A stretch of DNA of 64,000 bases from Gentiana macrophylla (lineage: Eukaryota > Streptophyta > Magnoliopsida > Gentianales > Gentianaceae), in contig CM047806.1 of the NCBI GenBank assembly GCA_026214975.1, positions 96,743,811-96,807,810 on the forward strand, read 5' to 3'. The translations under genes were made by a program, and so were the position numbers. The notes under the pieces were generated by a model. It had not been told where the DNA came from and made no database searches. It saw only the letters and a list, made by a program, of their open reading frames with translations. Below, one piece after another: positions 2,008 to 63,981 of the stretch. Each line of letters starts with the position of its first letter. Position 1 is the first letter of the stretch.

Positions 2008-2355
2008 AACGTCAATGGCAAGCTTCTGGAACGTCACCCACACTGTCGCCCGTAATGCATTAGTAACGTCACCATGGTTGACGTTTACACCAGCAAAGAA
2101 GATGAATATGCATGTCCCAAACGTTACCCTTGATGACGCTCCTCTGACCACTAAAACGTCGGTCCTGAATGACGCTTTGTGTTTCCAACCAACTTTAAAC
2201 ATATTTGTTGTTAACGCCACCAATCGACGTTTATGTTTACCTTTCAACGCCAATATAGCCAACGTTTTCTTGACTCTTGCCTGGAAAAGGCTTCCTTTAC
2301 AACGTCAAATAAGGGGCGTTGATTTGGCCAACCCAACGCCGGTTTCCTCAAGTTC
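2008..2355. repeat. Dyad array 1 (intron of MULE-1 transposase)
   Basis: This array has AACGTCA-type left arms and TGACGTT-type right arms separated by 7 bases. Dyads begin at about 2030 and 2065, 2120 and 2155, 2213 and 2246, and 2301 and 2335, giving start-to-start distances of 35, 35, 33 and 34. A lone left arm lies at 2008. The clearest dyad is 2065-2085. Several right arms are decayed and one spacer is 5 bp. The array lies between the ATG exon and the FAR1/DDE exons, so it is probably intronic. Confidence 0.8.
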
Positions 2356-4860
2356 GGATCTGTAATTTTTCATTTTGACAAGATGTGTTTTTACTTGGTT
2401 TTATTACTATTGAATCCATAGAAACAATGTAATGAGGCAAATCATGACAAAAGCAATGATGAGGGCGATTGCTTTTAGGCGACGGCGAGTATTTGAAGGT
2501 GAGAAACTATTAAATGGATATGTTATTTTCTTATTCTCATCCAATTGGCTATGACAATTATACGTTTCCTTGCGCTTTTGGTGATGAAATGATTGAAGAA
2601 GATCAAGAAAATCTTCGTAAAGTTCGAGATACCACACTCGCAATGATGGATGACCCACATGAAGAGTTATCGAATCGATTTGACTTCAATTTTACAAGCG
2701 ATCAAGTAAGTCTCTAAAACTTATACTATCTAAATGTATGTGATTTTTAAACTTGACTTGGTATTCATTACATTCATATATTATTCATAGGTATTTGATT
2801 CACATGAAGCCGCCACCAAACACCTCAAGGCATTGGCAAGAGAGAAAGGCGTTGTCATTGTGAAAAGAGATCCAACATGACCGGAAAGCGGACACATTTC
2901 ATTTTATACCAATGTGAGAGGAGGGATTTCCAAGAGAATACGAGAAAAGGTTAGCGGTACCGGAAAAAATAAGCCAAGAGAATCGCCTACAAAGAAATGC
3001 GGTTGTCCGTTTCTATTGAAAACCTTGAAGGATAACTTTAGGGAGGAGTGTGGACCGTTAGAGTATTGAATGGTGTACATAATCACAAGTTATTCAAGAA
3101 CGAGAGGAGGGTCATGCATACCTCGGCCGGATTGATAGAGAACAAGTTGATTTTGTTGCAACAATGACTCGCAAACGGTATTTTGCCTAAACATATACTA
3201 CGTATGTTGAGAAAGGATGATAAGAAGAATCAGACGTCATCAAAGGCGATCTACAATGTTCGTAAGCTAAGATAAAGAAGAAGGCACGAGAGGGCCGTAC
3301 AGTGATGCAAGAGGTTTTCAAATTGGCAGATAAGAACACATCATTCGTGGAATGTAGGCATGACGAAGGAAATGTAGTGAAGGATGTTTTTTGGGCCTTT
3401 AATGAAAGCTTGTCCCTTGCAAGGTGCTTTCCTACCGTGATGCTTATGGATTGTACATACAAGACGAACAAGTACAAGATGCCCCTCTTGCAAATTGTTG
3501 GCGTTACGTGTACGGATATGACATTTTCGATAGGATTTGCTCTACTTTGTTTGGAGAGGGAAGAGAACTACACGTGGGCTTTGACTATGCTTCGGAAAGC
3601 AATTGGTGTGAAAAGTGATCAAACATGTTGTATCGTGACAGATAGAGAAGAAGCATTAATGAACGCTTTACGGGTGGTTTATCCAAAAGCAAAGAACTTG
3701 ATATGCAGGTGGCATATAGAGAAAGGTCTTGTGGCGAATCTGAAGACGAAGACTACGAGCGAAGTTTGGCAAGATTTGATGACTGCTTGGACAGAGGTTG
3801 TTAAATCAGAATCAGAAGATGAGTTGAATGAGAGATTGGAAGAGTGTAAGAAGATTTTTAGTGAAGACGCCATGAGTTATGTCTCTTGTACATGGTTGAA
3901 CGCACATAAGGAGGCATTCGTCTCTGCATGGACCAACTCTGTTTTTCATCTGGGAAACACATCAACCTCGAGAGTAGAGGGAATGCATTCGATGATTTAA
4001 AACGGCTAAAAACCGGGCTTGGGGACTTGGTTGCGAGTGGGAAGCCGGTCTTTGCTTGATCGATCAAGAGATCAAAACATCAAAAAGTCATTCGAGACGT
4101 CTCTTTTCATGGAGCCAAAAAATATAAAGATGTTGTGTTGTTTAAAGAGCTTAAACATCGTGGTATCCATATACGCATTGGGCTTGTTGTATCTTTGAGT
4201 TGAAAAAACCAATGATAGTGATGCGTTGAATAAGGAGTGCCGATGTACTATTCGAAAGACACATGGATTGCCCTCAGAGACATGAGATGGCTAGATTTAA
4301 GAAGAAGCCATGATGCATCCTTTATCATTATCGATATTCATTGGAAGACCCTAGATATCAAAGGGCCACCTCCAAATGAATCCGAGTTAGACTATGTGCC
4401 GGTTCTGAATGCCTTAGAAGAAAAGTTGAAGATGGCAGATGTTTGGGAGAGACAACGGTTGATCATGAAGTCCCGTGACATTTGTCAACCGGTTAATACG
4501 GTTTTGCAAGAGCCAAAAACTAAAACCAAGGGTCGTGGCATACTAAGGGTTCCGGAAACAAGAGGAAGTTTGTTGAGGACTCTTCAACTAAGAGAGAGAT
4601 GAGCAAGTTTGAACACGTTGAGAAAGAATTGTCGAGTGTGAATGCCGCGATAAGCGTCTGAAGGTGTTTCTTCCGCCCCAACTCCACATGCATCGAAGGT
4701 GCTTCTAATGTCAAAAAGAAAAAAACCCATGACTCGAGCGGCATCCAAAGGTAGAATGCCAAAGGTTCCAAAGGTTGAGTGTAAAGTATCTTCTACCGTC
4801 GGAAACAGTATCTTAAAGAGTTTCCACCAAATGTGCATGAGCACATTACGCCTATGGTTG

Positions 4861-5417
4861 ATGTAGAGGCGATGGAAATTGCGGGTTTAGAGTAATAGCA
4901 CATGCAATAGGTCTTACTGAAACGATCGCCATTGGTGAGAAAAGCACCGCATTATGAATTGATGACGGACGTGGGATCATTATATTGCATTATTTTGGCG
5001 GACAAGAATGGATCTACTAAAAATGCATGGCTTGTGTTTGTCATGAAAAAGGACCATGCGGAGTGGAAAAGTATTTTGACAAATACCTTGGTTGGGTTGT
5101 GTGCAATGCATATGTGTGTCCGCAAGCATATTGTCTGCTCTCGCATGGAAACCAAACATTCTTTCCTAGTAAGAAAAAACCTTCGGTTTGGCCCGCCGCC
5201 ATATATGGATGGGGTTGTGCAAGGGTATCCATTTTGTTCGCTTGTTTTTGAAAGATACTTGTCCACTTCCTGAGTGAGCGTAAATTGGCATAAGGCTCGG
5301 ATGTTGAAAGCAAATGAATGGTATGTGAAATATCAACATAGGATCGATTTATGGCATGATGTGGTCAAGGATCATTGGATGGGGGATCATATTGATTTGG
5401 ACAATCTACCTGATTGA
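4861..5417 (+). pseudogene. OTU cysteine-protease domain of the MULE-1 transposase
   Basis: The block D-V-E-A then D-G-N-C-G-F-R-V-I-A-H-A-I-G fits the OTU family active-site signature, where Asp and Cys belong to the catalytic set. The two halves lie in different frames, meeting at about 4870. Downstream in the same frame as the motif is L-L-S-H-G-N-Q-T-F-F-P-S (about 5130-5170), typical of OTU-bearing plant MULE proteins. In the region where the family has a G-N-H-F-type catalytic His, this copy reads G-Y-P-F, so the His is lost. OTU enzymes remove ubiquitin or related modifiers. Here the domain is fused to a transposase and is inactive by both frame and residue. Confidence 0.75.
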
Positions 5418-6111
5418 GCGGGGTGTAGGCTGGAACACGGTTTTGTAAATTCATATGCAATATGATGAACTAGTTTAATTATTTTGGCATGATGCACAAT
5501 GAAGTAGTTAAATTCCAATGTTGTATTTCCAATGAAGTAGTGAAATTGGCATGATGCACAATTGGTTTAATTTTGATGTATGATTGTTTGTTAAGAAAAG
5601 GAACAATGTTGATTCTGGGTCAAATAACGTCAGTCAGAGTGACGTTTGGATTGAGATATAAACGTCGATAGTGATGACGTTTGAAGCTCCAATATCATCA
5701 AACTCTCTGTCCATAAAAATCCTTAAAACGTCATCCATAATGACGTTAATATGAAAGGGAACGCCGGATGACCGACGCTTTAAAGATTTTTAGTACGTAG
5801 AGTTGATGATTTTGGGGCTTCAAACGTCATCACCGCTGACGTTTATACATCAATTGAAACGTCACTATGGATGACGTTACATCCCGTAATCAACATTTTT
5901 CTTTTCTTTCCCACACCAATTCAAGTGACACCATTTCAAACATCAAAGGCCAAATAACCCAAATCGCATACGAACAAATAGGAAATCAACGGGGAATAAA
6001 AATACAAAATCCAAATACTAAATATAAACACGATTTTAAACAACCCAAACATTAAACTTATGAAAGTAATAAACGTGTCAAAGTTATAAATGTGTCAATG
6101 TTATAAGACAA
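5418..6111. repeat. Dyad array 2 in the spacer between the convergent MULE-1 genes
   Basis: Dyads begin at 5626 and 5661, 5727 and 5760 (decayed, GC-type), and 5823 and 5858. Pair spacing is 35, 33 and 35, and pairs repeat about every 96-101 bp. The dyads at 5626, 5661, 5727, 5823 and 5858 have full 7-bp arms and 7-bp spacers. The flanks (5418-5625 and 5879-6111) are AT-rich and hold no gene that I can support. Confidence 0.85.
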
Positions 6112-8651
6112 CTAAGTCTTTTTCGCGGCCCTCGAACGCTTCTTTGGTCTTTTAGCTTGTATCTGACTAGATTCTTGTGCTTCGACACCATCATCTTCAA
6201 CATCGTGTGTACATGCACTGTAGTCGAAACTCTTACGCCATTTGAAGCGCTTTCACTAAATCCTTTTTGGTTTTTTAGAAGCATTTCCAATCGTGATCTC
6301 GTGACCGCATCAATCACTCTACCCTTGCATTCATTCTCCTACATGTTAAACATAAAAACGTTCATTAAATTGAAAACGGAAACAACAAAATAGATTGTAT
6401 ATTCAAATACCTCTCTTGAATCTCGTTGCTTTCTTTTGCTGACACCGGTCAAACGACGCACGGCAACACCTCGATACCAAGTCATATACTCAGATGTGTA
6501 TTCCCAATCAAACCTAGCTTTTCCCATCCTTTGTTCCTTATTGACTAGATGATTTGCAAAATGGATAAAGTCATCGTCGCGTGATTCATGAGTGACATTG
6601 TACTGTTTCGCCTTCCCGCTTCGATTCGATGCCTTTGGAGGAATTGGTGACTGAGGGATACCTTGAATATGGCCAAATTGACGAACGACACGGTTTGGGT
6701 GATACACCTCTTCAATGTCCAATGTCCTTATGCACCCATAGAACCAACAGACGTCATTCTCAGGCACCGTTCTAAATTGCCGATAAGCATCCCAAACAAC
6801 CTACAAAATAGATAATGTAAGTTCAATGCGAACCGCATAAGTTACATTGTCCTATTATAAATTTAGTTAACTTACTTCTCGGGCCTCCATCAAGTCCAAG
6901 TCCTCTCTTGTATGCCTTAACGATGACAATGCCACTGTGTCATTAATTCCCGTAACATTTTTCCACTTTAATGTCCGTACCATCTCCCCTTCAATGAATT
7001 TCGTGTTTGGTGGAGGTCGCAATGAAGGAAAATGTTCGTACACCCATGCCTGCATAACACATATTACAAAATATTTCTTTAAACATTCAAACATAAAGAC
7101 AAAAAACAAAAAAAAAATTTATAAAACAAGTGTTACCTCCAACAATGTTAGGTATCCAGAAATTCCAACAGTACTGTTCCTAGTGGCCTTCGATAGCTGT
7201 CGGTAAAGATTTGCCAGTGTGGCAGCACCCCAAGCCCAATCACCAACCTTATCCAGATCCCGTAGAAAATGAAGGTAGTTAATGTTTATCTTATCCCCAC
7301 TACGGTCTTGCATCAAAGTACATGCAAGAAGATACAACAGATATCCGCGCACAGCTTGATCCACGATAAATTATCGGTGCGATCGACCGGAACTCGATGC
7401 CTCACCCGATTGATTCTTCTTACCGCATTTACCCGCAAGATCGTTTTTTAGCCAACTTTTGGACACTCTTAGGCCACCAACATGTTCTAACTCCTTTGTC
7501 ACGTCTGCTATTGGAATCCCTAACAGCTCGTGAACAAATGTAACTGGGTTGTCCTCTTTTGCAAATTCATAGTTCACGACCATTCCATCAACCGGTAATC
7601 TGTGATATATCGGACATCGCCTAATGTGATCGCCATCTCACCGAATGGCAAATGGAAAGTGTTTGTTACCGATTCCACCTCTCAACAAAAGCACAAACTA
7701 CCACACGATTCGCTTGGCTATATAAGAAGATTGTACCAGTTGTACAACGGGTTAGCTCTCACCTTGCCTTGAATTCGTCACATTCTTCATCAATCTTCCA
7801 TATCTTCAAGGAAGATGTGTCTTTGCTTACATCCAATTATACCTCGGTCCTGTTCAAATGAGTTTATATATAAAGTTAGATATGTGAAAAAAATATAAGT
7901 TTACCAAATATGTAATAAGATTATAAAACCTAAAAACATACATTTTTATTCAACAACGCGTAACCAACATGCTCCTTCCAATCCTTCCCCAATAGAACAT
8001 CAGTGTCTACCACCACACCATCATCACTGTCATATTGTAAACACTCAACCACGCTTCGCTTCTGCCGGTGCCCCGCATTTCCGGATGTCTCATCCCATAC
8101 TTGCACCAACATTACCTCGATGCCTCACCTATAGTGGCCCCGACTGGATTGGCTCTCTGTTCTGTAATGGCACCAACAGTACTAGAATCTGCAACTGGAT
8201 CAACTGTACCAGAAGGATGCTGCACTCCCGATTGTGTCTTCATATCCACTGACTCAGTGGTGGCCCCAACAAGATCGGAATCGCAGAATCGGATCAACTG
8301 TCCTGAACACATCGAATCGGATCAACTGGATCGATTTAAATCGATCAACTAGATCAACTGGATCAGTTGCAACTGGATCAACTGGATCAACTGCAACTGA
8401 CTCATTGGTCTCAACTACCTCATCTGTCTCTCCTAAACCAGCCTCAGTTGGCTCATTCGCATTTCCTATCTCTGCTTGCACATTCTTTAGTCGTTTACTC
8501 CTTCTTTTATATGGCACACTTGTATGTTCAAAAACAATACTAGGCTGAACTTGAGCTTCGAGGGTGCTTCAAAGAAGACGCTTCATCCATTCATGTACCT
8601 TCATCGCTATCTCAAAGCGTCGTGATACTTACTGCACCTCGTCTTAGTCAT
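6112..8651 (-). pseudogene. Plant mobile domain (PMD, MAIN/MAIL-like) gene of MULE-1, decayed
   Basis: The gene reads on the minus strand from ATG at 8649-8651 (M-T-K-T-R) to a stop at 6112-6114. The start is set by alignment with the MULE-2 copy at 51931. The N-terminus shares V-Q-P-S and K-N-V-Q-A-E with that copy, then becomes low-complexity and acidic with a D-P-V repeat. The PMD core follows in exon pieces: L-G-K-D-W-K-E-H-V-G-Y (about 7960), G-L-R-V-S-K-S-W-L-K (about 7450), D-Q-A-V-R-G-Y-L-L-Y-L-L-A (7364 down), A-W-V-Y-E-H-F-P-S-L-R-P (about 7050), and C-W-F-Y-G-C-I-R-T-L-D-I and V-R-Q-F-G-H (6760-6660). PMD proteins occur both as plant nuclear proteins (MAIN, MAIL1) and as transposon passengers. 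Frameshifts near 8560 and breaks around 7370-7650 make this a pseudogene. Its job for the element is unknown. Confidence 0.85.
8275..8410. repeat. GATCAACTG minisatellite in the PMD-1 N-terminus
   Basis: Short units built on GGATCAACT recur about ten times and encode the acidic D-P-V-D repeat of the PMD-1 N-terminal region on the minus strand. The MULE-2 copy has a different repeat (G-A-T-T and S-G-type units) in the same place. The segment therefore expands independently and is not a conserved fold. Confidence 0.7.
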
Positions 8652-8872
8652 AATTTCCTACACATGATACAAGAAATAAATTGTCAGTCAAATGAAGAAA
8701 TCAACTAACAAAGAAAGTTGACATTCATAAACAAAGCTCAAGGATAAGACATAAACCTCATACAATGTAACATTAACAATAATTTGATAAAAAAATTCAT
8801 AAAACAGACTAACCATAAACAAGTTATAACCAATGTAATCTCTAAAGTAACAAAACCTCTAAATCGTCATCA

Positions 8873-9194
8873 AACGTCAACACCATCGACGCGTGAAAAA
8901 GCCTCTACAACGTCATCACCAGTGACGTTTATAGTGCAAGACATTGGCATGACAACGCTCTGGAACGTCACTGGTAACAACGTTTCATAGGTCAATACAA
9001 CGTCAAAACCACTGACGTTTAAGGGCTAACATATTGCCAAGCCAATGTTCTAAAACGTCACCCCAACCGACGTTGTAGAACAACTACAACGTCATGTATA
9101 CCGCGTTCGGGCTAAACTAATTTTCCCACACACAGGTGGGACGCCGGCCTGGATGACGTTGAAACCTACAACGGGCGCCGGTCTCACCGACGCC
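8873..9194. repeat. Dyad array 3 upstream of the PMD-1 gene
   Basis: Dyads begin at 8873 and 8909, 8964 and 8999, 9054 and 9088, and 9140 and 9174. Pair distances are 36, 35, 34 and 34, and the tandem unit is about 90 bp. The last pair is GC-shifted: GACGCCG-N7-TGACGTT, then GGCGCCG-N7-CGACGCC. Differences from the consensus are mostly transitions. The array sits 220-540 bp upstream of the PMD-1 ATG (minus strand), which suggests a promoter or transposase-binding role. Confidence 0.85.
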
Positions 9195-9778
9195 CCTGTT
9201 TCATCATCTTCTCCGGCCTTCCAAACGGAAAAATGGCCGGAAAAACCAAAATACAACCCAATAAACATAACCCATTACATCCAAATACTAACCCATTACA
9301 TAGAATTTAAACCCATTACATCAAACACAAATTCACTTCCATTTAAACACAAATCCACAAACATTCAAACACATTTTCAAAGATTCACATACCTTGATTA
9401 TTCTTCTCTCCTTCTTTCTTTTCTACAATTCAAGTGAACTCTCCCTTCTTCTTCCCTTCTTCTTCCTCTTCTCTTCTCTTCTCTTCTCTTTCAATTTACA
9501 GTTTTTTTTTTTTTAATTTTGGTAACCACCGATTGGGAGGTTTTTTGGGGAAGAAGTGTTTGAATTAAAATGGTGGGAGAAGAAAAGGTGTATGTATTTA
9601 GTAGTTTTATTTAATTTGTATTTATTTTAGTGTTTTGTATAATTTTAGGGACTAAAGTGTAGTTTTTAAGTTTTTTTTTATTTTAATGTTGTGTAAGTAG
9701 TAATTACGCCAGCAAAAAAGTAAAAGAAAAAATAATCAATAATGCAGTGCAGAGTAGTAAAGGGGCCCAAATAGACCC
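9195..9778. other. Right subterminal region of MULE-1
   Basis: AT-rich sequence with a CTTCTTCC tract at about 9440-9490 and a T-run at 9502-9513. It contains no gene. It ends in the right inverted repeat (about 9748-9778). Confidence 0.6.
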
Positions 9779-10326
9779 TAAAAAATATTTATGGAAAGTA
9801 AATACTACTAAATATAAATACCCATTTTACCCTGCTTTATAAACAAGCCTCCGTCCAACGTCTTGTACACACCCACACAAATTTTCCGTTAAATTTTCTG
9901 GGCTCCTCTCTCTCTCTTTTCTCTTTCGAGAAAGACCGAACTCCCACCCGTTTTTGTCTGCCTTGAAAAAACGCGACCCTATCGCGGCCCCTTTTTCTTC
10001 TCTCTCTCCTCGGAAAAGAAATCCAAAAATATGGAAACGCATCCGTAATAAACCCTATATTCCGTTTTCACCCCTCTAACAACCTCTAAATCCCCTCTGA
10101 AACCCCTACCAGGATCCCCCCGGAATCTCCCCACCGGCACGTAAGTTCACAGAATCCGGTAGCACGATCCATTTCTACTTCTTAACGATCTCATAGATTG
10201 GTAAGAAGGATTGGCGAAGAGTTTTCAAAGAATTTTAGGGTTAGGGTAAAATTAGGGTTAGGGTTTGGGTTTGTGATTTACAATGTTATGGTGCAAGCCT
10301 GGTGGTGGTACCGGTGGTTTGAGACT
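9779..10326 (+). promoter_or_regulatory. Core promoter and 5' UTR of the PHD-finger gene
   Basis: TATAAATA at 9813-9820 and TATAAA at 9838-9843 are the candidate TATA boxes. The second is followed after about 60 bp by a CT-rich tract (9904-9926), common in plant 5' leaders. The coding start is taken at ATG 10327. An in-frame ATG at 10288 would add 13 Trp-rich residues and is less likely. The MULE-1 end lies 35 bp upstream of the first TATA candidate and 60 bp upstream of the second, so all more distal control sequence is transposon. A GTAAGT at 10141 could be a donor in the leader, but no good acceptor follows before the ATG. Confidence 0.55.
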
Positions 10327-44107
<33,781 letters not shown>

Positions 44108-46229: not shown

Positions 46230-46237
46230 ATTATTAT

Positions 46238-51280: not shown

Positions 51281-51557
51281 AACGTCGTCCATACTGACGT
51301 TCTTGCTGCAGAGCCAACGTCACCAGGGCTGAAGTTCAGGTCATAAAATCCCAGTAGGGTAACCTAGTTCTTTATCAGTGTGGGTGACGTTACTCTTGTC
51401 CTTGGAACGTCGAAGTGGGTGACCTTCCCAGAACGTTTGTGGTGGTGACGTTTAGGTAAAAACAGAAATGTCCATGTGGACGGAGTTTGTGTCTTACCAG
51501 AAACGTTCATGAAGCTGACGTTTATTTGTGTATGATAACGTCAACATGACTGACGTT
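51281..51557. repeat. Dyad array 4 upstream of the PMD-2 gene
   Basis: Dyads start at 51281 and 51316, 51371 and 51406, 51432 and 51467, and 51502 and 51537. Every pair is exactly 35 bp apart. The best are 51281-51301 and 51537-51557. 51371 and 51467 keep the position but have worn arms. The array is 370-650 bp upstream of the PMD-2 ATG, matching array 3 of MULE-1. Confidence 0.88.
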
Positions 51558-51930
51558 ATATGCTGAATTTCATTATAATGGCTTAATTAATGTGCATATA
51601 ACAACTTCAAATTAGTGTATTTTTTTACATTGTAAACAACTTTCCAACTATAAATTAGCGTATTTCCAACTATGAATTAGTGTATTTCTTCATATTGTAA
51701 ACAAATTTCCAACTCTGAATAAATGAATATCGATACTTATTAATGCGCAATGTGTCATGAATTATATTGTTATGAATTTTGCATATTTGTGGTAGTATTT
51801 CCTGTGGTGAAAATATATATGTCATGCATATGGTTTTTAACTAGGCTTTGTTGCTTTATTTTGAGTTTATTTGTTAGTTGATTACTTCATTTGCATGACA
51901 ATTCATCTGTTGTCACATTTGTAGGAAATT

Positions 51931-54900
51931 ATGGCTAAGACGAGGTCTGGTAAGCATGTACGCTTTGCAGAGAGTGATAATGTGATTGATGAAGGTACCG
52001 CAGTGGATCAAGTTTGTTCGGAAGCACCGTCTGAAGCTCATGTCCAACCTAGTAATGTTTCTGAACATACAGGTGTGGCATATAAAAGAACTCGGAAACA
52101 GCAAAAGAATGTGCAAGCCGAAAACATACAAGTCTAGAAGCCTACAATGGAAGTTGATGTTGCCTCTAACACTGAGGCTGCATTAGGAGAGACAACTGGT
52201 AGTGTAGTGGCAATTGAGGTAGTTGAGATGCAGGAAGAGAGTCAATCAGGGACAGTTGAGGCAGTTGAGACAAAATAAGAATGTCAATCAAGAATAGTTG
52301 AGGCAGATGCAATATTGAGTGCTAGGGACACTACATAAGCAGTTGGGAGTGCAGGGGCATTAGGACAGACAGTTTCTAGTGCCAGGGCCACTACAGATAT
52401 AGTTGGGGCCGGGGTGTTAGTGTTGGGGCTACGACAGACACTCAGTTGGGGGTGTTAGTGTCGGGGCTATGACGGAGGCTTTTGGGAGTGCATGTGAATC
52501 AGCAGAGACAATTGGTAGTGCTGGGGCCACTACATGAGAGGCATCCGGTAGTTTCGGGTCTGCTATAGGAGAGGCATCTGGTAGTGTTGGGGCACTGACA
52601 GAGGCATAAGTAGCCACAGCTTAGTATTTAGAGTATGATAGAGACGATGGTGTGATGGTAGACACCGATATTCTATTGAAGGATTGGGAGCAGCATGTTG
52701 GTTATGGGTTGTTGAATAAAACAAAGGTATGGTATTTTCAAAGTTGTATAGTTTTATCGTATTGTTTTAAACATATATATAACGTTATATTCTTATCGGA
52801 AAATTGAACACGACCGAGGTATCATTGAATGAAATCTAAACACATCTTTCCTTCGTCCGTGGAAGATTGATGATGAACGTGATGAATTCAATGCAAGGTT
52901 GAGAGCTAATCCGTAGTACAATCTGGTACATTGTTCATAAACCCAATCCAATCGTGTGGTCGTTAGTGCATTTGTTGAGAGGTGGCATCCGAAAACACAC
53001 ACCTTCCACTTGACATTCGGTGAGATGACGATCACACTATATGACGTCCGATATATCACATGCTTACCGGTTACGAAACATGCCGTGAACTTTGAATTTG
53101 AAAAAACTGATAAACAAGTACACTTTGCTCATGAGTTGTTAGGGGTTGGTATACAAGAAGTGGAAGTTGAGTTAGCCCATTCTAATGGACTACGGGTGTC
53201 CAAAAGTTGGTTGAAGAACATGCTTGCGGGTAAATACGGTACACGAAGTAATGAGGGTAAGGGATCCTGTACCGGTCAGACTGCACGGATCATTACTGTG
53301 GATCAAGCTGTGAGCGGATATTTGTTGTACATGCTTGCATGCACTTTGTTTCAAGACCATAGTGGAGATAGATAGACATATCTTACCTTCATTTTCTACG
53401 GGATTTGGATAAAGTAAGTGAGTGGGCTCGGGGTACTGCTACACTGGCAAATCTTTACCGGCAACTATCGAAGGGTTCTAAGATCAATAATGTTGGAGTT
53501 TCTGGATACCTGACATTGCTAGAGGTAACACATGTTATTTAGATGATTTTTTGTGTTTAGTGTATATCTTTAAACGATTACACGACCGTTTCAGAAATAT
53601 GTTTTTTACAGGTGATCACGTGCTACTCATTAATTACTAACAAGAGTAGCAGCATAGCAAGGGCGAGTCAAGGTCGACCCCACATAGACAATGCAACATT
53701 GATAATAAACGTATTAATCTAACTAAGAACACATATAATGGTCTACAACCCACATAAAGATAGAAAATAAAGTTGGTGTTCCTCCTCCTAACTGATCTCC
53801 TAGCTTGGTGTAAGTAATCATTATGTTTATTTATTTATTTATTTTTTGAAAATAATCATTATGTTTACTTTCCCCGTAATTCCCTGATTCAATCAGAACT
53901 TATGTTTCAATTCAGTTTTAGGTACGGGTGCAATCTCTTAACCTTGTTTACTTCCATTTGCAAGGACAATAAACGTCTATGTGCAAATAACCTCCTTCGT
54001 TGGTTGTATTAACTAACACGCAATAAGTTCTAGAAAGTGCCGGCTCAAGACCGAGAACCTCCCTAAGCAGCCATCGACATTTACTGGCATGTTCCTAAGG
54101 ATTGATCCAGACTATGTCCTAACTAACACTTCACCTTGCAAGTCCTTCATGTTAATTTACAAAATACGACAAGTAGATTGACCAGATCTAACCTACCGCG
54201 AATTAAACTGGTCGATCAACGTAGCTGAATCTCCATATTTAGGGTGACCTAGATTTGCCTCGCAATTGCGAGATAGACCGTCGCAATTGCGAGCACGGTG
54301 GTTCCTAACTTTGGAATTTTATAGTTCTATTCCGATTTATTCTGGTAAAGTTAAACATGCAGATTAATTACATTGCGTTAAATAAAGCTAATCAACCATA
54401 ACGAAAATATAAAGGAACGTTCAAAGCTTCATACCTTCGACTATGGCAGATCTAGCTTGATCAACTCAAGCTAGTTGATGTCTTGGGGAAGGAAACCAAT
54501 GGAAGAACTCAAAGCAATAACCAAGAAACTAATTTATTTCATAAAACTAAATAGTAGTTGGAGTATGTGTTACAATGGGGCTGGTACAGGCTATAAATAA
54601 GCACTGTAACTGACTTAGTATGATCTAAAACCCTAGCTGACTTAGACATAACACGCATATTCATTTCTTGTCGCCCAAGGTCTCGTAATTGCGGGCGTGG
54701 CTTTTGCTTCTGTAATCCCTGTAGACTTCTTCGTGGACTCTCTTATTTCGGCCTAATGACTCTTTATGACCCGGATTCATCCTCCTTTGCTCCAGAATAT
54801 GGTATACCTAAAGAGCACGGAAAACAAGGCAAAACAGTACCCAATCCAAGGATAAATACGTAAATGCAAAATTAATGACCAAGGAACATACACTAAGCAA

Positions 54901-55937
54901 TCGATATGTATTTCACACAATAACCGGACTATCTCTCATCAATTGAGCACGATTTAGGGTAAATAATTGTATAGTTTATAGTATTAAATATAGTGTTATC
55001 AACAGGCTTGGGTGTACGAACAATTTCCAGCATTGCGACCTCCGACTAACAACTATTTCAATGCATGGGAGATGGTACGGTCATTGAAGTGGAAACCTAT
55101 TACTGAAATTAACGATTATATGGAAGTGTCATCGTTAAAGCATTTAAGAGAGGACTTAGACGTGATGGAAGCACGAGATGTATGTATGAACTTTCACATT
55201 AACTAATATAATAGCACGTTTAGTTATACTTAAAGCATTTTTCATCTTGCAAGTTGTTTGGGATGCTTATCGGGAAGTGCGAACGGTGTCTGATGATGAC
55301 GTATACTGGTTTTATGGATGCATAAGGACACTAGACATTGTAGAGACATGTCAACCAAACCGTATCGTCCGTCAGTTTGGTCATGTCCAATCCATACCAC
55401 AGTCATCGATTCCTCCAGATAAATCCACCAGAAGCGAGAAGGTGAAAGAATACAGTGTCAACTATGCAACACGTGACGATGACTTCATCCATTTTGTCAA
55501 CAATCTAGTGCATAACAGTCAAATAATGAGGAAAGTTAGATTTGATTGGGAATGCACGGATGATTACATGGACTGTGATCACGGTGTTTCTGTACGTCGT
55601 TTGACCGGAGTGAGCAAAAAAGAAGCAATGATATTCAAGAGAGGTTTGACCATATCTATTTATGAATAGACAGTAAGTTGTGTCTTTTTTCATTGTAATT
55701 AATGTTTTTTCTGTTTAACTATAGGATGAGGCAAACAAGACTAAAATGATTGATGCTCTACAAGATGCGATGGTGAATGGTTCAAAGAATAGTAAAAAGA
55801 ATCAATTGAAGGTCATTGAGATGGCATGCGAGTTTTTGAATGATGGTGTAAGTACCCAAGATGTCGGTGTCGAAGCAGAGGCCGAAGTCAAAGATGGAGA
55901 ATCAGAACAAAGACCGAAGAAAGACCGTGAAAAATAA
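51931..55937 (+). pseudogene. Plant mobile domain (PMD) gene of MULE-2
   Basis: ATG 51931 (M-A-K-T-R-S-G) is set by the match to the MULE-1 copy. An N-terminal region rich in G, A, T and E runs to about 52725 and has stops (first at 52135). The PMD core follows: F-H-L-T-F-G-E-M-T-I-T-L (about 53010), G-L-R-V-S-K-S-W-L-K-N (about 53190), D-Q-A-V-S-G-Y-L-L-Y-M-L-A-C (about 53300), then an intron (53526-55004) with a large insert, A-W-V-Y-E-Q-F-P-A-L-R-P (55005), W-F-Y-G-C-I-R-T-L-D-I (55310), V-R-Q-F-G-H, R-F-D-W-E, R-R-L-T-G-V (to 55640), and a charged tail ending at 55935-55937. It is better kept than PMD-1 (140-residue open core blocks) but has stops and a shift after 53370. Confidence 0.85.
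53598..54990. other. Unassigned insert in the PMD-2 intron
   Basis: About 1.4 kb lies between a donor (53526) and an acceptor (55004) where MULE-1 has only a short intron. It includes two copies of the palindrome TCGCAATTGCGA (54261-54272 and 54281-54292). No frame, LTR pair or terminal inverted repeat could be fixed, so the element type is unknown. Confidence 0.45.
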
Positions 55938-58188
55938 GTTCTGGTCTTAGATCCTTGATACATTTCCGTAAACATATAACTTTACATTTCCGTCTTTCAT
56001 TTGGAGTTTTTATTTCCATATTTTTATTGGTTTGATTTGGAGTTTGGAGTTTTCATTTGGAGTTTGGAGGTTTATTGGTTTGGATTTTTATCGGTTTGAT
56101 TTTGATTTTGTTTGGAACATTTTATTAGTTTTGATGATGGTCATACCATTTGTTATAGTTAGCCTGAAACAAGTCTAAAATTGAAATGTATAGGTTTTAT
56201 TAGAAATCTAACATTGTATAAGTTAGTCAAACTAAGCACTGTAATTAGTAGTTTGGTTGGCCAGCTTAGTAGAGTGAAGACCGAAGATCAGCTGAGTACC
56301 AAGGCTGAGGATCCAGACTTAGTTAAGTGAAGACCTATGGACTGACTTACAACCAATGAAGTCTGGGATGACCTTGGGTAAGTGTAAGATAAGCATCTAC
56401 GAGATGAAATAATTGTTTGTCAAAATGGTGTACACTGACCTCACCCAAAATAAGCGTCAGTGAAATGCCATCTTAATCGGCTAAAGAAAATAAAAAGTGA
56501 AGCATCGGCAGAGAAAATATAAGCTTAGAAGAATCAGCAGAGTAATAATCAACACAGAAGCGAAGCTGAAGATTGAACAACATACAGAAGTCAGCCAAGT
56601 GGCAATAAGCAAGCTGACTATGAAATCAAGTGATATGACCAAGCAAACACTTTAGTACACAAGAATCAGCCAAGTTCAGTGAACAAACCAGGCAGTTGAT
56701 TAATCAAATGAACTACCTGAAGTAAGCCGACAGACGCAAAAAGCAAATTAAACATGTGGAAAATATGGAAGACAAGAAATTGAATGCAGAAATATTCCAG
56801 GATGGATTTTATGATGGACGTTGGAATTAAAATCGGGAACACGCAAATCAGGAGAATTAAATCAGGATAGAATTAAGGATTATTCCCTTGTCATTAATTA
56901 GCCAACAGACAAAATTTCAAATTCAAGGAAATCATGGCTATAAATAGAAGGCTTCATCAGAAGGCAAAATAATAAGAATAACGATCTATCTTTTGCTCAC
57001 ACTGTGTCAAAAAGCTATATACTCAGAGCTTCAAAGAAGAACAAGAAATCAAGTTCAGAATTCCCAGGCTCTTACAAGATTTATCAAGTCTGAACTTGAT
57101 CAAGTTTGTGAATTCTTCAATTCAAATCCTTGTTATCTCTTTTAGAGATCGTCAAATCAGTGAAGAGACATCAGTTGTCTTCAAGGACTGAAGCAACTGA
57201 ATTAGAGCCATTTGAGAATGAGTTGTGTGTGATAGCTATTGAGGACAAAATCCGAAGAAACGATGTTGGAGTTCAATCACTGAAGCATTTATTGCCAGGA
57301 AGTGATAACTCGAAGATTGTGAAGATTTTGTAGTGAAGCACAATCACCTCTATTGTAACGATGTACCACAATAGTGAATTCCTCCGATAATCACAAGAGA
57401 ATAGAGGACTAGGGGACTACACCACCCCGAACCTCTATAAGCCTTGCGTTATTTACATTTCAGCATTTATTTATGCATTTACTTTCTGTTTACTTATTTG
57501 TCTTTGTGTGTGATTGCATAACTTTGAAGAACTCATATTTTAGAAGGGTTATTCAGCTGCATAAACTTTTCAAGAAGAAAAAGTTTTTAAATTACAGATC
57601 AAGATCATTCACCCCCTTCCCCCCTTTCTGACCCTTGATCTACCCTTCTCTGGGAAATAAAATTTGGTATCAGAGTAGTGTTCTTTGTATCAGAACATGT
57701 TCAGATATGATTTTCTGGTAACAAAGAAAGCGGATTATTTTTCAATGTTTTTCAAAGTTTTAATACATTTACAAAATTTTAGTCTCAAGGATTTATGTCT
57801 AAGATTCCCATCTTCAGCATTAACAATTTTGAAGAATATGAAATTTTATGCTCTCTTCTCTTGCAACCACTCATGAGGAGATGCTAGATGTGATCAATGA
57901 TGGCCCAATAAAGATAATGACTCAAGTGACCGTTGGTGCAACTCAAGAAAGCTGGGTGGAGAAACCCAAAACAGAATGGACCAAAGATGATAGGAAAAGA
58001 GTCAACCATGACTTTGTGGCCAAAATAATATGATTATAAAGACTCTAGACAACAACATGTTCATGAGGGTGAAAGAATGCAAGACACTTAAAGATACGTG
58101 GGACAAGCTTGCCTTGATAAACGGAGGATCTGAAGCTATAAATGAGAACAAACTGTCTGTTGCTAAATAGAAGTTTGAAAACTTCAAG

Positions 58189-58578
58189 ATGAAGAGTGGA
58201 GAATCAATTGAACAGATGGATATCAGGTTTTCTACAATACTCACCGAACTACAACAGCTGGGTCAAGTCTACCCTCAAAAGGAAGTGTGCTTGAAGATTC
58301 TTAGAGCTCTACCAGAAAGATGGAAGATCACCACTTCCGTTCTGAAGGGAACTATTGAACTAAGCACGACAGATACACTGACCCTAATGTCTGAGCTGAA
58401 AGATCATGAGTTCAAGTTAAATAATGAAGATGGAAGACCCGCTGAGGCACCCAAGACCAGCGCACTGGTGGCACCTCAGCAAAGTAAAGCTGATGACAGC
58501 GTCAGCAAAGAGACTCAAGAGCTAAGAGAGAAAATTGCATTAATGGTCAGAAGATTTGAAAAATTCACAAAGAGGTAG
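58189..58578 (+). pseudogene. Copia G gag core
   Basis: 129 residues in one frame with M-K-S-G-E-S-I-E-Q-M-D-I-R-F-S and L-R-A-L-P-E-R-W-K-I, the retrotransposon gag core (UBN2 type). It ends in K-R just before a stop. The upstream gag start (57848) is in the same gene but separated by a stop at 58031. Gag normally forms the particle around the RNA. Confidence 0.8.
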
Positions 58579-61364
58579 TATAAAGGTAGCTCATCATCCA
58601 AACACAAGACTTCATCAAGCAAAGACTTCAAGAAAAGAGATAAAGAAGTACGCTGCTTGAACTACAAGCGAAAGGGGCATTACAAAGCTGATTGCCCTTA
58701 AGAGAAGAAAGAGAATGATGAAAAGAAAATAAAGAACAAGTCCTCAGACAAGATAAGGCACTCATCTGACAAGACCAAGAGTAGAAGAGCACTAAAAGCA
58801 AAAACCATCAGTAGCAGTACTAGCAGTACAAGTGAATCAGCTGACAACATAGATTGATCCAGCTCAGAGGATGAGAAAGCATGTCTATGCCTAATGGAAA
58901 AAGAGATATAAGAAACATAGATATTGTCTTGTAACTCTACAACTAGAGCATCTGTTTCTGATACTGCACAATCTTCTATTCTCCCACTTGGATCTGAGAG
59001 TCTAATTCAAAATCTCATGAGCAAAATTGAAGAAATTAAAATAAATCTTGAGGTTCTTGAAAATGAATGTGATGATTTAAGGAAAGAGAATAAAAATTAA
59101 GAAGAAAACTGGATAAGCTAAGATCCAACTCAGCTGGTAATGAGAAAGACTCAATTGGTCAAAAGGAATCAGATGACAAGTCATCTGATAACAACAGTCC
59201 GGCTGATAAAGTCTCAGTATCAGCTGAAAGGATTTCTGAACCAGCTTACAAACCTCCCAAAAGGTTTAGAGCCAGATCTGGTCTTGGCTATGGCAGCCGG
59301 GATGAGAAAAGGTCTAATAATCAGCACACATCTAAACTCAAGACCAAAACTGGTCCTAAATTCAGAAAATGGCAGATTATTATATTAGGTCAAGCATTCA
59401 TCCTGCACCATCTAAGTAAAAGACCAGTGTAGTAAACCAGAAAGGTAAGTCTTCCTATAGCCAGCCTACTAAAGACAAAGATACAGTTAAGGGTAAATGA
59501 AGACTTTATCCCTCAGATGATGGCTGGAATGTTCCACCTCTAGCACTAAAGATTACCAGCTCACATATGGAAATCTGAATCTAGGAAGAACCATAATAAG
59601 TCTGGTCCTGGATACAGAAGTCAGTATGATAGCATGCCAACCCAGTCTACTGAAGAGTGAAGAGATATGCCAGTAGGCTGAAAGGGAGAAAGGTATCTCA
59701 TAATACCTTCAAACACTTTGTTAGAAGTTATTCTTCCATGCCTTACACCTATGAAGTTGATGACTTCAACCTACCAAGAAAAAGTTGGTTATACACTTAG
59801 GGTAAGAGGCATTAAAGCTAACATGTATGGACCCAAATAGTGTTGGGTACCTAAAAGTGCATAATCTGTTTTGCAGGCTATCTGGTACATTGACAATGGA
59901 TGTTCTAAACACATGACTGGCAGCAAACACTGGTTGACTGATTATAAAGCTTTTGATGGACCCAAAGTCAATTTGGAGGCAAAGAGAAGCCTGGAAAGAC
60001 TAAGGGGGAGTGAAATAAATTAAAGAACAACTTGAAGATCCAGAATGTAGCCTATGTCAAAGGACTGAACTTCAATTTCCTAAGTATCAGTTAGTTCTGT
60101 GACAAAGGATACAATGTTTGTTTCAACAAGGAAGGTTTTCAAGTGAATCACAAGCGTAACATTGTTGTCCTATCAAGAAAAAGGGAAGACAACATGTATG
60201 TAGTGCACAGGAGCACAACCAAAGCAAAGACTTGCCTGATAGTCAAAGCCAAGTAATCACCTATATGGATATGACACAGAAGACTAAATCATCTAAACTT
60301 CAAATCCATCAACAAGCTGGCAAAGAGTAAATTGGTAAAAGTCTTACCAGAAACAACTTTCAAGAAAGAGAGCTTGATGCATGTCAGAAAGGGAAACAGA
60401 TTAAAAACTCATTCAAATCAAAGCCACACCAGTCAACAACCAGGATCTTGAAGCTGTTACACATGGACCTTTTTGGACCTGTCACACCGGTCAGTGTAAG
60501 TGGAAATAAGTATACCTTAGTGGTAGTTGATGACTACTCCAAATACACTGGGACTGTGTTCATGAACAAGAAAAAGGAGACACTCAAGAAACTTCTTGAT
60601 CTTTTAAGAGATTGAAAAATGAGAAAGATCTGAAGATTTGTAAGATCAGATCAGACAGACGAACTGGATCTCTAAATCAAACTATTAGGAGCTATTGTGA
60701 AAAGAATGGAGTAATGTATCAACTATCTACATCAGGCACTCCACATCAGAATAAAGTAGCAAAAAGTTGAAACAAAACACTCAAGGAGGTTCTCAGATCA
60801 ATGATTGCAGAAGCAGGCCTTCTCAAGAGATTGTGGACTGAAGCAATAAATACAACATGCTATACTCAGAACATATCAATCATGAACAAACATCATGGAA
60901 GACACCGTATGAGTGAGGAATGGGAGAAGACCAAACATCTCACACCTACATATGTTTCGGAGCCAAGTGTTTTGTCCTCTATAATGCCAGGAACCATCAT
61001 AGTACATTTGATGAGAAAGCTGATGAAGGCATATTCATGGGATATTCAGATACCAGCAAAACGTTCAAATCCTGAACAAGAGGACATTGGTGATTGAAAA
61101 TTCAATCCATGTGGTGTTTGATGAACCAAATACCAGCTGTGAAGACCCAAGAATCCCAAAAGATGAAAGGACCAAAGGAAAGGATTTTGAACCTGTCTAT
61201 ACAAATGCAGAAGTACAAACTGCAATCCCAGAGGACTCAGTTGAAGACCAAGAATCAACACCAGCTGATACTGCAGCTAAGATACCAGTTCAAGCACAAC
61301 TCTAACTAGATATCAACTAGCTTAGAGATCACTCAGCTTATCAAGTCATTGGAGATGTAAACAT

Positions 61365-61975
61365 ATGTGTCAGAACCAAAAGACAACTGGAGAGTATGCT
61401 AACTTGTTTCTGTCACAGGTTGAACCAATTACAATGGATGATGCAATCCAAGATGTAGATTGGATCACGGCAATGCAAGAAGAACATAATGAGTTTGAAA
61501 TAAATCATGTTTGCGAAATTGTGGACAAACCTGATCATGCCAACATCATAGGAACCAAATGGGTGTTCAAAAACAAGATGGATGAACGATGAGCAATAGT
61601 CAGAAAACAAGGAAAGATTGGTGGATAAGGGTTCATCACATCTGAAGGAAAAGACTATGATGAAGCCTTTGCACCAGTAGCAAGATTGGAGGAAATCGGT
61701 CTGTTTCTGGCATATGCAGCTCACAAGAACTTCAAAGTCTACCAAATGGATGTGAAGGGTGCATTTTTAAATGGATTGCTTGAAAAAGAAGTTTATGTGG
61801 AGCAACCACATGGATTTCAGATCATAGTTAAGGAAGATAAAGTGTAAAGATTGAAGAAAGCATTGTATGGACTCAAACATGCACCCAGAGCCTGGTATGA
61901 GACTCTGTCACAATTTCTCATCAGCAATGGATTCAACAAAGGAACCATTGACAATACACTATTCAAGTTAGAAGA
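61365..61975 (+). pseudogene. Copia G reverse transcriptase, truncated
   Basis: W-I-T-A-M-Q-E-E and G-T-K-W-V-F-K-N-K (to 61590), then A-F-A-P-V-A-R and [11 protein letters not shown] (about 61745), and A-L-Y-G-L-K-H-A-P-R-A-W-Y (about 61860). Stops at 61590, 61626 and 61845 interrupt it. It ends before the YVDD box, where the hAT-like piece begins. Confidence 0.82.
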
Positions 61976-61981
61976 TGGATC

Positions 61982-62265
61982 CATCTGGGGGTGGCATTGA
62001 GTTGGGACCCGACCGGTAAACCTCCTACCCGAACCTGTCCCGACAAGATTCGGGATTCTATTTTTCTTCCGAGCCCGTACCCGATATGCATCGGGTTCCG
62101 ACAATTAGGATACCCGAATGTTCGGGATCTCGTCGTGCTGGGAATGAATGTCCCGAACATATGATCTTAAAAAAATATTCTTGTTAATATAAAAATATTA
62201 CGACAATTACTTGATCAAAACAATAGTTCAAAAGGTGGGGCGGAGAAATGAGTTAACGGTGAGTA
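61982..62265. mobile_element. hAT-like GC-rich fragment within Copia G
   Basis: Starts GGGGGTGGCATTG and carries many CCCGA and TCGGG units in both directions, like the subterminal region of the hAT element at 45676. After about 62160 it is AT-rich. No second terminus or 8-bp duplication is evident. It joins cut RT directly to a truncated 3' LTR. Confidence 0.5.
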
Positions 62266-63482
62266 ATAATGCTTAGAAGAATCTCTGAGTAATAATCAAC
62301 ACAGAAGCTAAGCTGAAGACTGAACGGCACACAAAAGTCAGCCAAGTGGCAAGAAGCAAGCTGATTATGAAATCAAGTGAGCTGGCCAAGGAAACACTTC
62401 AGTACACAAGAATTGGCCAAGTTTAGTGAACAAACCAGGCAGCTGATTAATGAAATTAACCAGCTGAATCAGTAAGCTGATAGATGCAAAAAGAAAAATT
62501 AAACACGTGGAAAACATGGAAGACAAGGAAGAGAATGAAGAAATATTCAAGGACGGGTTTTATGATGGACGTTGGGAATTAAAACGAAGATTATGCAAAT
62601 CATGAGAATTAAATTAGGACAGAATCAAGGATTATTCCCTCGTCATTAATTAGACAACAGGAAAAAAATTCAAATTCAAGGAAATCATGGCTATAAATAG
62701 AAGGCTTTATTTGAAGGCAAAATAACAAGAATAACGATCTAGATTTTGCTCACACTCTATCAAAAAACTATATACTCAGAGCTTCAAAGCATTATCAAAA
62801 ACTCAAGTTTAGAATTCCCAGGCTCTTACAAGGTTTATCAAGTCTGAACTTTCTCAGGTTTGTGAATTCTTCAATTCACATCCTTTTTATCTCTTCTAGA
62901 GATCGTCAAATCAGTGAAGAGACATATGTGTCTTCAAGGACTGAAGCAACTGAATCAGAGCCATCTGACAAGGAGTTGAGTGTGATAGCTGTTGAAGGAT
63001 GAAATCCGAAAGAACAGTGTTGTAGTTCAATCATTGAAGCATTTGTTTCTAGGGAGTGATAACTCAAAATGTGAAGCTTTTGTAGTGAAGGACAATCACC
63101 ACAATAGTGAATTCCTCCGATCATCACAGGAGTAGAGAGGACTAGGGGATTACACCATACTGAACCTCTATAAGCCTTGCGTTATTTACATTTCAACATT
63201 TATTTACGTATTTACTTTTGTTTACTTATATGTCTTTGTGTGTGATTGCATAACTTAAAAGAACTCATATTTTAGAAGGGTTATTCCGCTGCATAAACTT
63301 TTCAAGAAGAAAAAGTTTTTAACTCCTGATCATGGTCATTCACGCCTCCTATGACCCTTGATCTACCATTCTGTAGGACCAATAGATTTTTATTGCTTTG
63401 ATTTGAAAAATAGAACATAAACAATCTGGTCTTTTATTTGCATTTCATACTCCCAATAGAACATATACAATCTGGTATTCTA

Positions 63483-63981
63483 AACGTCAACCCTACTAAC
63501 ATTAATGTGTGTAAAGCAACGCCAGTTGTGGTGACATTTTGAAGAACAAAACCAATTTCATTATGTTCTTTAAAACGTCAACAAGGCCAATGTTGTTGAT
63601 GAATAACAAACGTCAGTGTTGCTGACGTTCCAAATGTAGAATGGTCTAGCTTCTATTTTTTCAGACGTTAGCAGGGGCGTTCATATGGACTTAGGAAAGT
63701 TAGAGTGGTTGATGTTTGGATGAACATAATGGTTTAGCTTCTATTTTTTAAAATGTCAGCTATAGATGTGTTCATATGGACTTAGGAACGTCGGAGTGGT
63801 TGACGTTTGGATGGTTTAGCTTCTGTTTTTTAAAACTTCAGCTGTTGGGTCATTCCTGTTGGAATATCGACGTCATTGTGGTTGACGTCTATGGTTCAAG
63901 GTTCTATATTGTTTCTGGTTTACCAGGCGTCGGTTCCACTGACGTTCACGGTGTTTGATGATTTCCTTTATGGCTGGTGTT
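63483..63981. repeat. Dyad array 5, MULE-2 middle array
   Basis: Dyads start at 63483 and 63518, 63574 and 63609, about 63664 and 63696 (with a small deletion), 63752 and 63787, 63834 and 63869, and 63926 and 63961 (worn). Five of six pairs are exactly 35 bp apart. Best examples are 63609-63629, 63787-63807 and 63869-63889. The latter has GACGTCA-N7-TGACGTC with matching outer changes on both arms. The place corresponds to array 2 of MULE-1. Confidence 0.88.

What the first reader, a model, noticed from the sequence alone, without database searches (positions are those of the whole stretch)
2008..63981. A 21-bp dyad with fixed 7-7-7 geometry, always in pairs 35 bp apart, marks this MULE family
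Seen directly: in five arrays of two separate elements the motif RRCGYCR-N7-YGACGYY recurs with conserved 7-bp arms and a spacer whose length (7) is kept while its sequence changes. Dyads are paired with starts 35 bp apart (33-36, mostly exactly 35), so half-sites fall at 0, 14, 35 and 49. The worn dyads still sit at the 35-bp position. The 14-bp linkers are not conserved. Inference: selection has kept spacing, as expected for a multimeric DNA-binding complex. The ACGT core resembles bZIP/TGA targets, but the inverted 7-bp spacing does not fit the as-1 tandem. I know of no description of such an array.
Basis: partly seen in the sequence, partly recalled or inferred. Interest (0 to 1): 0.92.

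Follow-up and report, generated by a model that had tools for sequence, protein, structure and literature searches.

The report
Paired dyad arrays in plant MULEs
A plant jumping-gene family carries arrays of a short two-armed DNA mark whose arms are kept while the DNA around them changes fast, which suggests a docking platform that may help the element resist silencing.

Summary
The dyad AACGYCA-N7-TGRCGTT forms six arrays in three elements here. Eight further elements, picked from the 1.79 Gb genome by transposase match (65-97% identity), all carry it: 98 dyads at spacer 7 against 0.3 expected. Arrays sit in an intron of the transposase gene, between the convergent transposase and PMD genes, and in the PMD 5' intron. 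Start-to-start distance is 34-36 bp in 50 of 110 consecutive gaps, with a period near 91 bp above it. Arms are kept; linkers and especially spacers diverge faster than four-fold sites in 7 of 7 pairs (E1/L026: arms 8%, linkers 19%, spacers 36%, four-fold sites 3%). Miniature elements of about 350 bp are little more than terminal repeats plus an array. Best reading (0.5): a platform for a dimeric, element-encoded protein that counters silencing, as VANC does in VANDAL, in an arms race with small RNAs. It is not a VANC system: no listed DUF1985 gene lies within 15 kb of 60 copies. The binder is unknown; there are no binding, methylation or small-RNA data here.

The parts
1307..9779 (+). Element E1: MULE with tip GGGGGTTCTATTTGGACCCCC, transposase gene (+) and convergent PMD gene (-)
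   Evidence: TIR tips; MULE PF10551 E=7.4e-27 and PMD PF10536 E=1e-9
1669..1833 (+). E1 transposase exon 1 (55 codons); donor GTAATTTCTT at 1834, also in L020, L026 and L027
   Evidence: intron inferred from sequence, no transcript
2008..2335 (.). Array A1 in transposase intron 1 (dyads 2030, 2065, 2120, 2246; single half-sites 2008, 2301)
   Evidence: high divergence against L020 and L026
3266..5354 (+). E1 transposase coding remains: MULE domain 3266-3997, OTU-like C-terminal region about 4868-5354
   Evidence: MULE; OTU-like by tblastn with L033
5626..5878 (.). Array A2 between the convergent transposase and PMD genes (dyads 5626, 5661, 5727, 5823, 5858); lies in a 77-bp imperfect inverted repeat
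6342..7719 (-). E1 PMD coding remains
   Evidence: PF10536, 6342-6800; tblastn with the E2 PMD piece to 7719
8652..9392 (-). 5' intron of the E1 PMD gene: donor GTATGT at 9392, first ATG at 8651 just after the acceptor
   Evidence: inferred from sequence
8754..9194 (.). Array A3 in the PMD 5' intron (dyads 8909, 8964, 8999, 9054, 9140, 9174; worn 8754, 8873)
29310..29658 (.). Element E3: 349-bp miniature element, TIRs GGGGGCTAATATTGG / CCAATAGGAATCCCCC, flanks TACAAATA / TACAAAGA (7 of 8 alike)
29431..29549 (.). Array in E3: four worn dyads at 29431, 29466, 29494, 29529
50800..64000 (+). Element E2, related to E1 (PMD-side pieces 73-76% identical), interrupted by an LTR-retrotransposon-like insert about 56540-63322; runs off the window
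51281..51557 (.). Array in the E2 PMD 5' intron (donor GTATGT at 51143)
52941..55666 (+). E2 PMD coding remains (52941-53372 and 55190-55666)
   Evidence: PF10536 E=3.6e-20 and 5.5e-7 (the second below the curated cut-off)
63483..63946 (.). Array downstream of the E2 PMD gene, at the place of A2; holds one younger 91-bp tandem duplication (63640-63813, 82% matches)

Best explanation
The arrays are cis-acting docking platforms for a protein that binds the 21-bp dyad as a dimer and neighbouring dyads cooperatively. The binder is probably encoded by the element itself (PMD protein, or the transposase with its OTU-like tail). It works as VANC does for VANDAL: bound in the first introns and the shared 3' region, it keeps silent marks off the element, and in trans off miniature copies that carry the array, so that genes are expressed and ends stay open. 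The host answers with small RNAs against this DNA, so all that the protein does not read diversifies fast, above all the spacer, the only part of a 21-24-nt window over a dyad that is free to change. Shown: motif, spacing, places, arm conservation, local high divergence, presence in miniature elements. Inferred: the binder, dimer binding, anti-silencing, the small-RNA pressure.
For: (a) 8 of 8 elements chosen by transposase match carry arrays: 98 dyads (<=2 mismatches, spacer 7) against a shuffle mean of 0.3. (b) Profile not conditioned on dyads: of 115 exact half-sites in the panel (8.9 expected) 75 have TGACGTT (<=1 mismatch) at +14 and 42 at +49, i.e. the partner arm and the next dyad 35 bp on; no other offset from 7 to 60 has more than 4. 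(c) Places match VANC21 targets, which lie in introns, intergenic and terminal non-coding DNA. (d) Arms are kept while the rest runs: E1/L026 arms 31/389, linkers 133/710, spacers 69/194, four-fold sites 3/88; L032/L033 7/119, 20/221, 16/59, 1/91. The largest connected peaks of divergence lie on the arrays. VANC targets also diverge rapidly, and escape from RdDM is proposed as the cause (PMC10398659, abstract and passages). (e) Miniature elements keep TIRs and array and little else. (f) Ikeda et al. speculate that MULE-captured PMD acts in anti-silencing (PMC5418596, passages). (g) 37 of the 60 best transposase hits have a listed PMD hit within 12 kb downstream, 37 of 37 on the opposite strand (lists). 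(h) The CG in the arm survives: C changed to T in 8 and G to A in 2 of 94 partner arms.
Against: No binding, methylation, small-RNA or expression data. I know of no report that PMD binds DNA (recalled, not searched). L031 has 18 dyads (<=3 mismatches) but no PMD was found in its 8.8 kb, which points to the transposase as binder, or to a loss. In L006/L024 the array is not a hotspot (linkers 0.16, outside 0.23). In L029/L030 spacers were not faster than linkers (0.33 against 0.34). In E1/L026 other stretches on the PMD side are also high (0.13-0.32 near 6.1, 6.7-7.1 and 7.2-7.4 kb) and two array windows are low (0.03, 0.07). Point (h) is weak because CpG is only mildly depleted in the elements outside dyads (observed/expected 0.62-0.90). 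Spacing may in part be inherited from tandem duplication: L032 holds a young 7-copy 91-bp array.
Confidence: 0.5

Rival explanations
1. The arrays are internal transposase-binding sites that assemble the transposition complex, like subterminal repeats of other DNA transposons.
For: Miniature elements that must be moved in trans keep TIRs and array. L031 has arrays without a detected PMD gene. MURA and TnpA also lower methylation of their own elements (passage in PMC10398659), so this rival can merge with the best explanation.
Against: Arrays are not at the ends: in E1 they begin about 0.7, 4.3 and 7.5 kb into an 8.5-kb element. The TIRs have a repeated motif of their own (TTCTATTGGCACC and the like), unlike AACGYCA.
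Confidence: 0.2
2. The dyads are bound by a host transcription factor (for instance TGA-type bZIP) and serve as promoter-proximal enhancers of the two genes.
For: ACGT core in 60 of 94 partner arms; two of the three arrays lie in 5' introns. MITEs that spread host factor sites are known (passage in PMC13317346).
Against: 21 of 94 partner arms carry ACGC instead of ACGT; the third array lies between two convergent 3' ends; a host factor gives no reason for divergence several-fold to over tenfold that of four-fold sites.
Confidence: 0.15
3. The arrays are neutral relics of tandem repeats; spacing is kept only by common descent.
For: Clear tandem origin in places: L032 91-bp x7 with a 182-bp super-repeat, 34-bp units in miniature elements, 91-bp duplication at 63640-63813.
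Against: Neutral decay cannot keep arms at 8% beside spacers at 36% (E1/L026), nor put arrays at the same places in elements with 64% identical transposases.
Confidence: 0.07
4. Divergence is high because the arrays are mutation or exchange hotspots (palindromes, conversion between units), not because of selection for diversity. This bears on the divergence only and can hold beside the other readings.
For: Dyads are palindromic; arrays gain and lose units.
Against: Inversion of spacers is not seen (reverse complement fits better in 1 of 21 strongly changed spacers). Spacer changes are unimodal (0 to 6 of 7, mode 3, 40 dyads), unlike block replacement. Transversions exceed transitions in spacers (118 to 77, summed over the five autonomous pairs), unlike deamination. 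Some exchange cannot be excluded.
Confidence: 0.08

Closest known systems
VANDAL/VANC anti-silencing system of Arabidopsis (VANDAL21/VANC21, VANDAL6/VANC6)
   Same: MULE; short motif at high density in introns, intergenic and terminal non-coding DNA; tandem origin; rapid divergence of the target DNA (PMC5735166, parts 1-3 of 6 read; PMC10398659, passages).
   Different: VANC motifs are 8-9 bp, YAGTATTAY arrayed in one orientation; here a two-armed dyad with a fixed 7-bp spacer, in pairs. No listed DUF1985 near these elements. Arms held while spacers outrun linkers is not described in the parts I read. A 2022 EMBO J paper by Sasaki et al. on diversified VANC systems is cited in papers seen but not held; that it reports motif density and helical periodicity as determinants is recalled, not seen, and would bring the two systems closer.
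MUDR-clade MULEs with an antisense PMD gene
   Same: Transposase plus PMD on the opposite strand: 'PMD in antisense for most of them' (MUDR), 'PMD in most, often antisense' (MUDRAVI2) (table passage in PMC6446971)
   Different: No motif arrays are mentioned in the four passages seen
En/Spm TnpA and MuDR MURA
   Same: Transposon-encoded proteins that lower methylation of their own element (passage in PMC10398659)
   Different: MURA acts on TIRs (same passage); that TnpA sites are subterminal is recalled. Here the sites lie in introns and mid-element
as-1 / TGA bZIP elements
   Same: TGACG core
   Different: Inverted arms with 7-bp spacer, ACGC tolerated; as-1 geometry recalled

Membership tests
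VANC/VANDAL anti-silencing | MULE transposase in the element | tested here: met
   PF10551 E=7.4e-27
VANC/VANDAL anti-silencing | Short motif arrays in non-coding regions of the element | tested here: met
   8 of 8 panel elements and E1, E2
VANC/VANDAL anti-silencing | Target DNA diverges rapidly between related copies | tested here: met
   linkers and spacers above four-fold sites in 7 of 7 pairs; the pair L006/L024, without transposase, shows no hotspot
VANC/VANDAL anti-silencing | Encodes a VANC protein (DUF1985) | tested here: not met
   0 of the 60 best transposase hits have one of the 150 scored DUF1985 hits within 15 kb, nearest 207 kb; only 150 of 1628 DUF1985 candidates were scored; none in the open frames scanned
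VANC/VANDAL anti-silencing | Degenerate or no TIRs (usual, not universal: some of the clade have TIRs) | tested here: not met
   E1 has TIRs; miniature relatives have clear TIRs
VANC/VANDAL anti-silencing | Protein binding to the motif and loss of methylation | not testable with these tools
   needs EMSA, ChIP or bisulfite data
MULE with antisense PMD (MUDR/MUDRAVI2 type) | MULE transposase and PMD on opposite strands | tested here: met
   37 of 60 with a listed PMD hit, 37 of 37 opposite strand
MULE with antisense PMD (MUDR/MUDRAVI2 type) | 8-10 bp target-site duplication | tested here: inconclusive
   E3 flanks 7 of 8 alike; E1 flanks A/T-rich and ambiguous
MULE with antisense PMD (MUDR/MUDRAVI2 type) | Transposase falls in that clade of a tree | not tested
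   no tree was built
as-1/TGA bZIP element | ACGT core in each half-site | tested here: inconclusive
   60 ACGT and 21 ACGC among 94 partner arms
Transposase subterminal repeats | Sites near both ends, sharing the TIR motif | tested here: not met
   one array lies about 4 kb from either end of E1; TIR motif differs

The most novel reading that the evidence does not exclude
PMD-MULEs run their own, VANC-independent, sequence-specific anti-silencing system, the missing role of the captured PMD (or of the transposase-OTU protein). The code is geometric: a dimer reads two 7-bp arms 14 bp apart, and facing half-sites of neighbouring dyads lie 21 bp within a pair and 42 bp between pairs (2 and 4 helical turns). 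The unread spacer and linker DNA is under diversifying selection to escape small RNAs, which leaves the binding footprint readable from sequence divergence alone.
Probability: 0.35. Interest if true: 0.88.

Novelty: new variant of a known kind. Interest (0 to 1): 0.7.

Why it matters
MULEs in many plants carry PMD genes, and what PMD does there is not established in the papers I saw; a cis target that co-occurs with them makes the proposed anti-silencing role directly testable. If right, anti-silencing by motif arrays works outside the VANC lineage too. Frozen arms beside fast-changing spacers would show selection for escape from homology-based silencing at single-base resolution, and the array is a ready bait for finding the binder.

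Tried and rejected
Spacer inversion across the palindrome: rejected (1 of 21 strongly changed spacers fits better as reverse complement). Deamination as cause of the hotspot: not supported (spacers 77 transitions to 118 transversions in five pairs; arms are transition-rich, 112 to 53). One recent tandem expansion with identical spacers: rejected for E1 and most arrays looked at; true in part for L032. RNA hairpins: not pursued. Helical phasing of facing half-sites (21 and 42 bp): fits 35- and 56-bp gaps but not the 26-27, 47-48 and 53-54 bp gaps; left as an idea. PDB search with the L032 transposase: no match. Identifying the species: not achieved; the closest protein is an unnamed 58% hit. 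The exact genome count of AACGTCAN7TGACGTT did not complete. No structure was predicted.
Full report
WHAT IS THERE. The window lies in a 1.79 Gb genome (G000:C2:96743811-96807810); that it is a plant follows from its MULE, PMD and retroelement content. Three elements of one MULE group lie in it. E1 (1307-9779) has a transposase gene on + and a PMD gene on -, tail to tail. E2 (from 50800) is the PMD half of a related copy, 73-76% identical in four blastn pieces, interrupted by an LTR-like insert. E3 (29310-29658) is a miniature element. All carry the dyad. Exact dyads occur 9 times at spacer 7 and never at another spacer from 0 to 20; with up to 2 mismatches there are 23 against 0.14 in shuffles.

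WHERE. In E1 the arrays lie in intron 1 of the transposase gene (exon 1 1669-1833, donor also in L020, L026 and L027), between the two 3' ends, and in the 5' intron of the PMD gene (donor GTATGT at 9392, ATG at 8651). E2 has an array in the same PMD intron and one downstream of PMD. Introns are inferred from sequence only.

PANEL. The E1 transposase domain matched 150 scored places (of 2421 candidates), 62-100% identical. I fetched eight of them, 65-97% identical, for a spread of identity and mostly for an open frame, without regard to the motif. All eight carry arrays: 21 exact, 33 one-mismatch and 44 two-mismatch dyads at spacer 7; mean of 40 Markov shuffles 0.3, maximum 2. The next commonest spacers up to 30 are 27 (15), 15 (7), 19 (7) and 13 (6), none exact. 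Of 110 consecutive gaps within 17 arrays, 50 are 34-36 bp; random placement gives 6.5, maximum 16 in 2000. Of 112 consecutive gaps up to 130 bp, 21 are 54-57 bp, so the pair tends to repeat every 90-91 bp. Anchoring on exact half-sites alone (115, 8.9 expected by composition), the partner arm TGRCGTT stands out at +14 to +20, two spacer positions (2: Y, 6: R) keep a symmetric bias, and the next dyad shows at +35. Of 115 exact TGACGTT, 94 have a partner arm with at most 2 mismatches. The intron and intergenic places hold in all eight; dyads at the PMD 5' side within the fetched stretch are seen in L026, L027, L029 and L032, the others being cut short, lacking that part or without it. PMD pieces were found in 7 of the 8; L031 is the exception. 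An OTU-like region follows the MULE domain in 9 of 9 elements including E1 (the Pfam OTU match in L033 is below its cut-off).

GENOME-WIDE. Reversed-pattern controls give 6707:493, 3880:237 and 2498:657. In one search I tallied 39 of the 50 listed places at spacer 7. In one search, 63 of the 100 listed places have half-sites 33-35 bp apart. The listed places come from the first 36 Mb of contig 1, so these tallies are a positional sample.

MINIATURE ELEMENTS. Twenty loci were taken from the first 14.2 Mb of contig 1 around dyad hits (20 of roughly 28 clusters listed), so they are chosen by the motif. Only one (L020) holds E1-like transposase; none gave a hit to the PMD pieces. By my reading, 8 of 20 (L007, L008, L010, L011, L015, L017, L022, L023) are short elements of about 0.2-0.4 kb with the TIR motif TTCTATTGGCACC (up to 3 mismatches) facing inward on both sides of the dyads; L006 and L024 are alike but about 1.6 kb. 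Those drawn out hold about five dyads, mostly in 34-bp steps. L007 and L008 are two ends of one inverted 10-kb duplication (96%) and count once. L032, a copy with transposase, has a similar TIR at its far end.

ARMS HELD, REST RUNS. Sliding comparisons show E1/L026 at 0-8% over most of the element and mostly 9-32% over the arrays (two array windows at 3% and 7%), with other high stretches on the PMD side (near 5.5, 6.1, 6.7-7.1, 7.2-7.4 and 8.1 kb); L032/L033 and L028/L030 have their main peaks on arrays too. By class (arms, linkers, spacers, four-fold sites): E1/L026 0.08, 0.19, 0.36, 0.03; E1/L020 0.13, 0.25, 0.44, 0.02; L032/L033 0.06, 0.09, 0.27, 0.01; L028/L030 0.09, 0.26, 0.42, 0.13; L028/L029 0.22, 0.43, 0.49, 0.08; L029/L030 0.16, 0.34, 0.33, 0.04; E1/L027 0.14, 0.55, 0.64, 0.35. 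Caveats: four-fold sites are few (60-91 per pair); a homologous dyad can be counted from both sides; dyads with at most 2 mismatches in one copy are the units, which lowers arm differences somewhat; in E1/L027 the alignment itself leans on the arms. With dyads found in either copy arms come out higher (0.12-0.22), close to the linkers in E1/L026 (0.136 and 0.138) and above them in L032/L033 (0.224 and 0.189), while spacers stay at 0.34-0.46 in the five autonomous pairs. So the firm results are that spacers change most and that intact dyads tend to have intact homologues; how far arms lie below linkers depends on which dyads are counted. The pair L006/L024 shows no hotspot.

INTERPRETATION. Fixed geometry, arms conserved beside changing spacers, placement in introns and between genes, fast turnover, and retention in miniature elements together fit a binding platform used in cis by all copies. 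The VANC system of VANDAL elements has the same overall logic (PMC5735166; PMC10398659, passages). But this is no VANC system: DUF1985 matches abound in the genome, yet none of the 150 scored lies within 15 kb of the 60 best transposase hits, and the motif is two-armed. Ikeda et al. had speculated that PMD captured by MULEs serves anti-silencing (PMC5418596, passages); the arrays give that idea a target. In tea, 175 loci of phased small RNAs lie at PMD genes (PMC10673657, passages), so small-RNA pressure on such genes is real in at least one plant. Which protein binds remains open; the TIRs have a different repeated motif, which argues mildly against the transposase as the only reader.

CONFIDENCE. 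Observation near certain. Selection on arms and spacing very likely. Binding by a dimeric protein likely. Anti-silencing by an element-encoded protein about even.

Noticed in passing
window:4868-5354; L033:3598-4206: OTU-like cysteine protease region at the C-terminal end of the transposase gene in all nine elements compared (E1 and L026-L033); weak to Pfam (E=1.4e-3, below cut-off).
   Followed up: partly
window:56540-63322: LTR-retrotransposon-like insertion inside E2: direct repeats about 5.75 kb apart, pieces 82-95% alike.
   Followed up: no
L032, array at 4428-5009 of the reversed locus: Seven 91-bp units with an alternating 182-bp super-repeat, the youngest-looking array seen.
   Followed up: partly
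L007 and L008 (G000:C1 near 1.29 and 1.63 Mb): A 10-kb inverted duplication, 96% identical, about 333 kb apart.
   Followed up: no
G000:C1:16559255, 22931190, 20442341 and others: A second array type with 35-bp steps, second arm TGGTGTT and a linker like TTCCTTGTGGAACACCA, perhaps a sister family with a changed arm.
   Followed up: no
genome G000: Many DUF1985 (VANC-domain) matches (1628 candidates, 150 scored, all 150 over the cut-off), so DUF1985-bearing elements, perhaps VANDAL-like, seem abundant beside the PMD-MULEs.
   Followed up: partly
window:10186-11784 (+): PHD-finger gene 0.4 kb beyond the right end of E1.
   Followed up: no
panel arrays (L026-L033): Centres of facing half-sites are 21 bp apart within a 35-bp pair and 42 bp between pairs, near whole helical turns; several other observed gaps do not fit.
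   Followed up: partly
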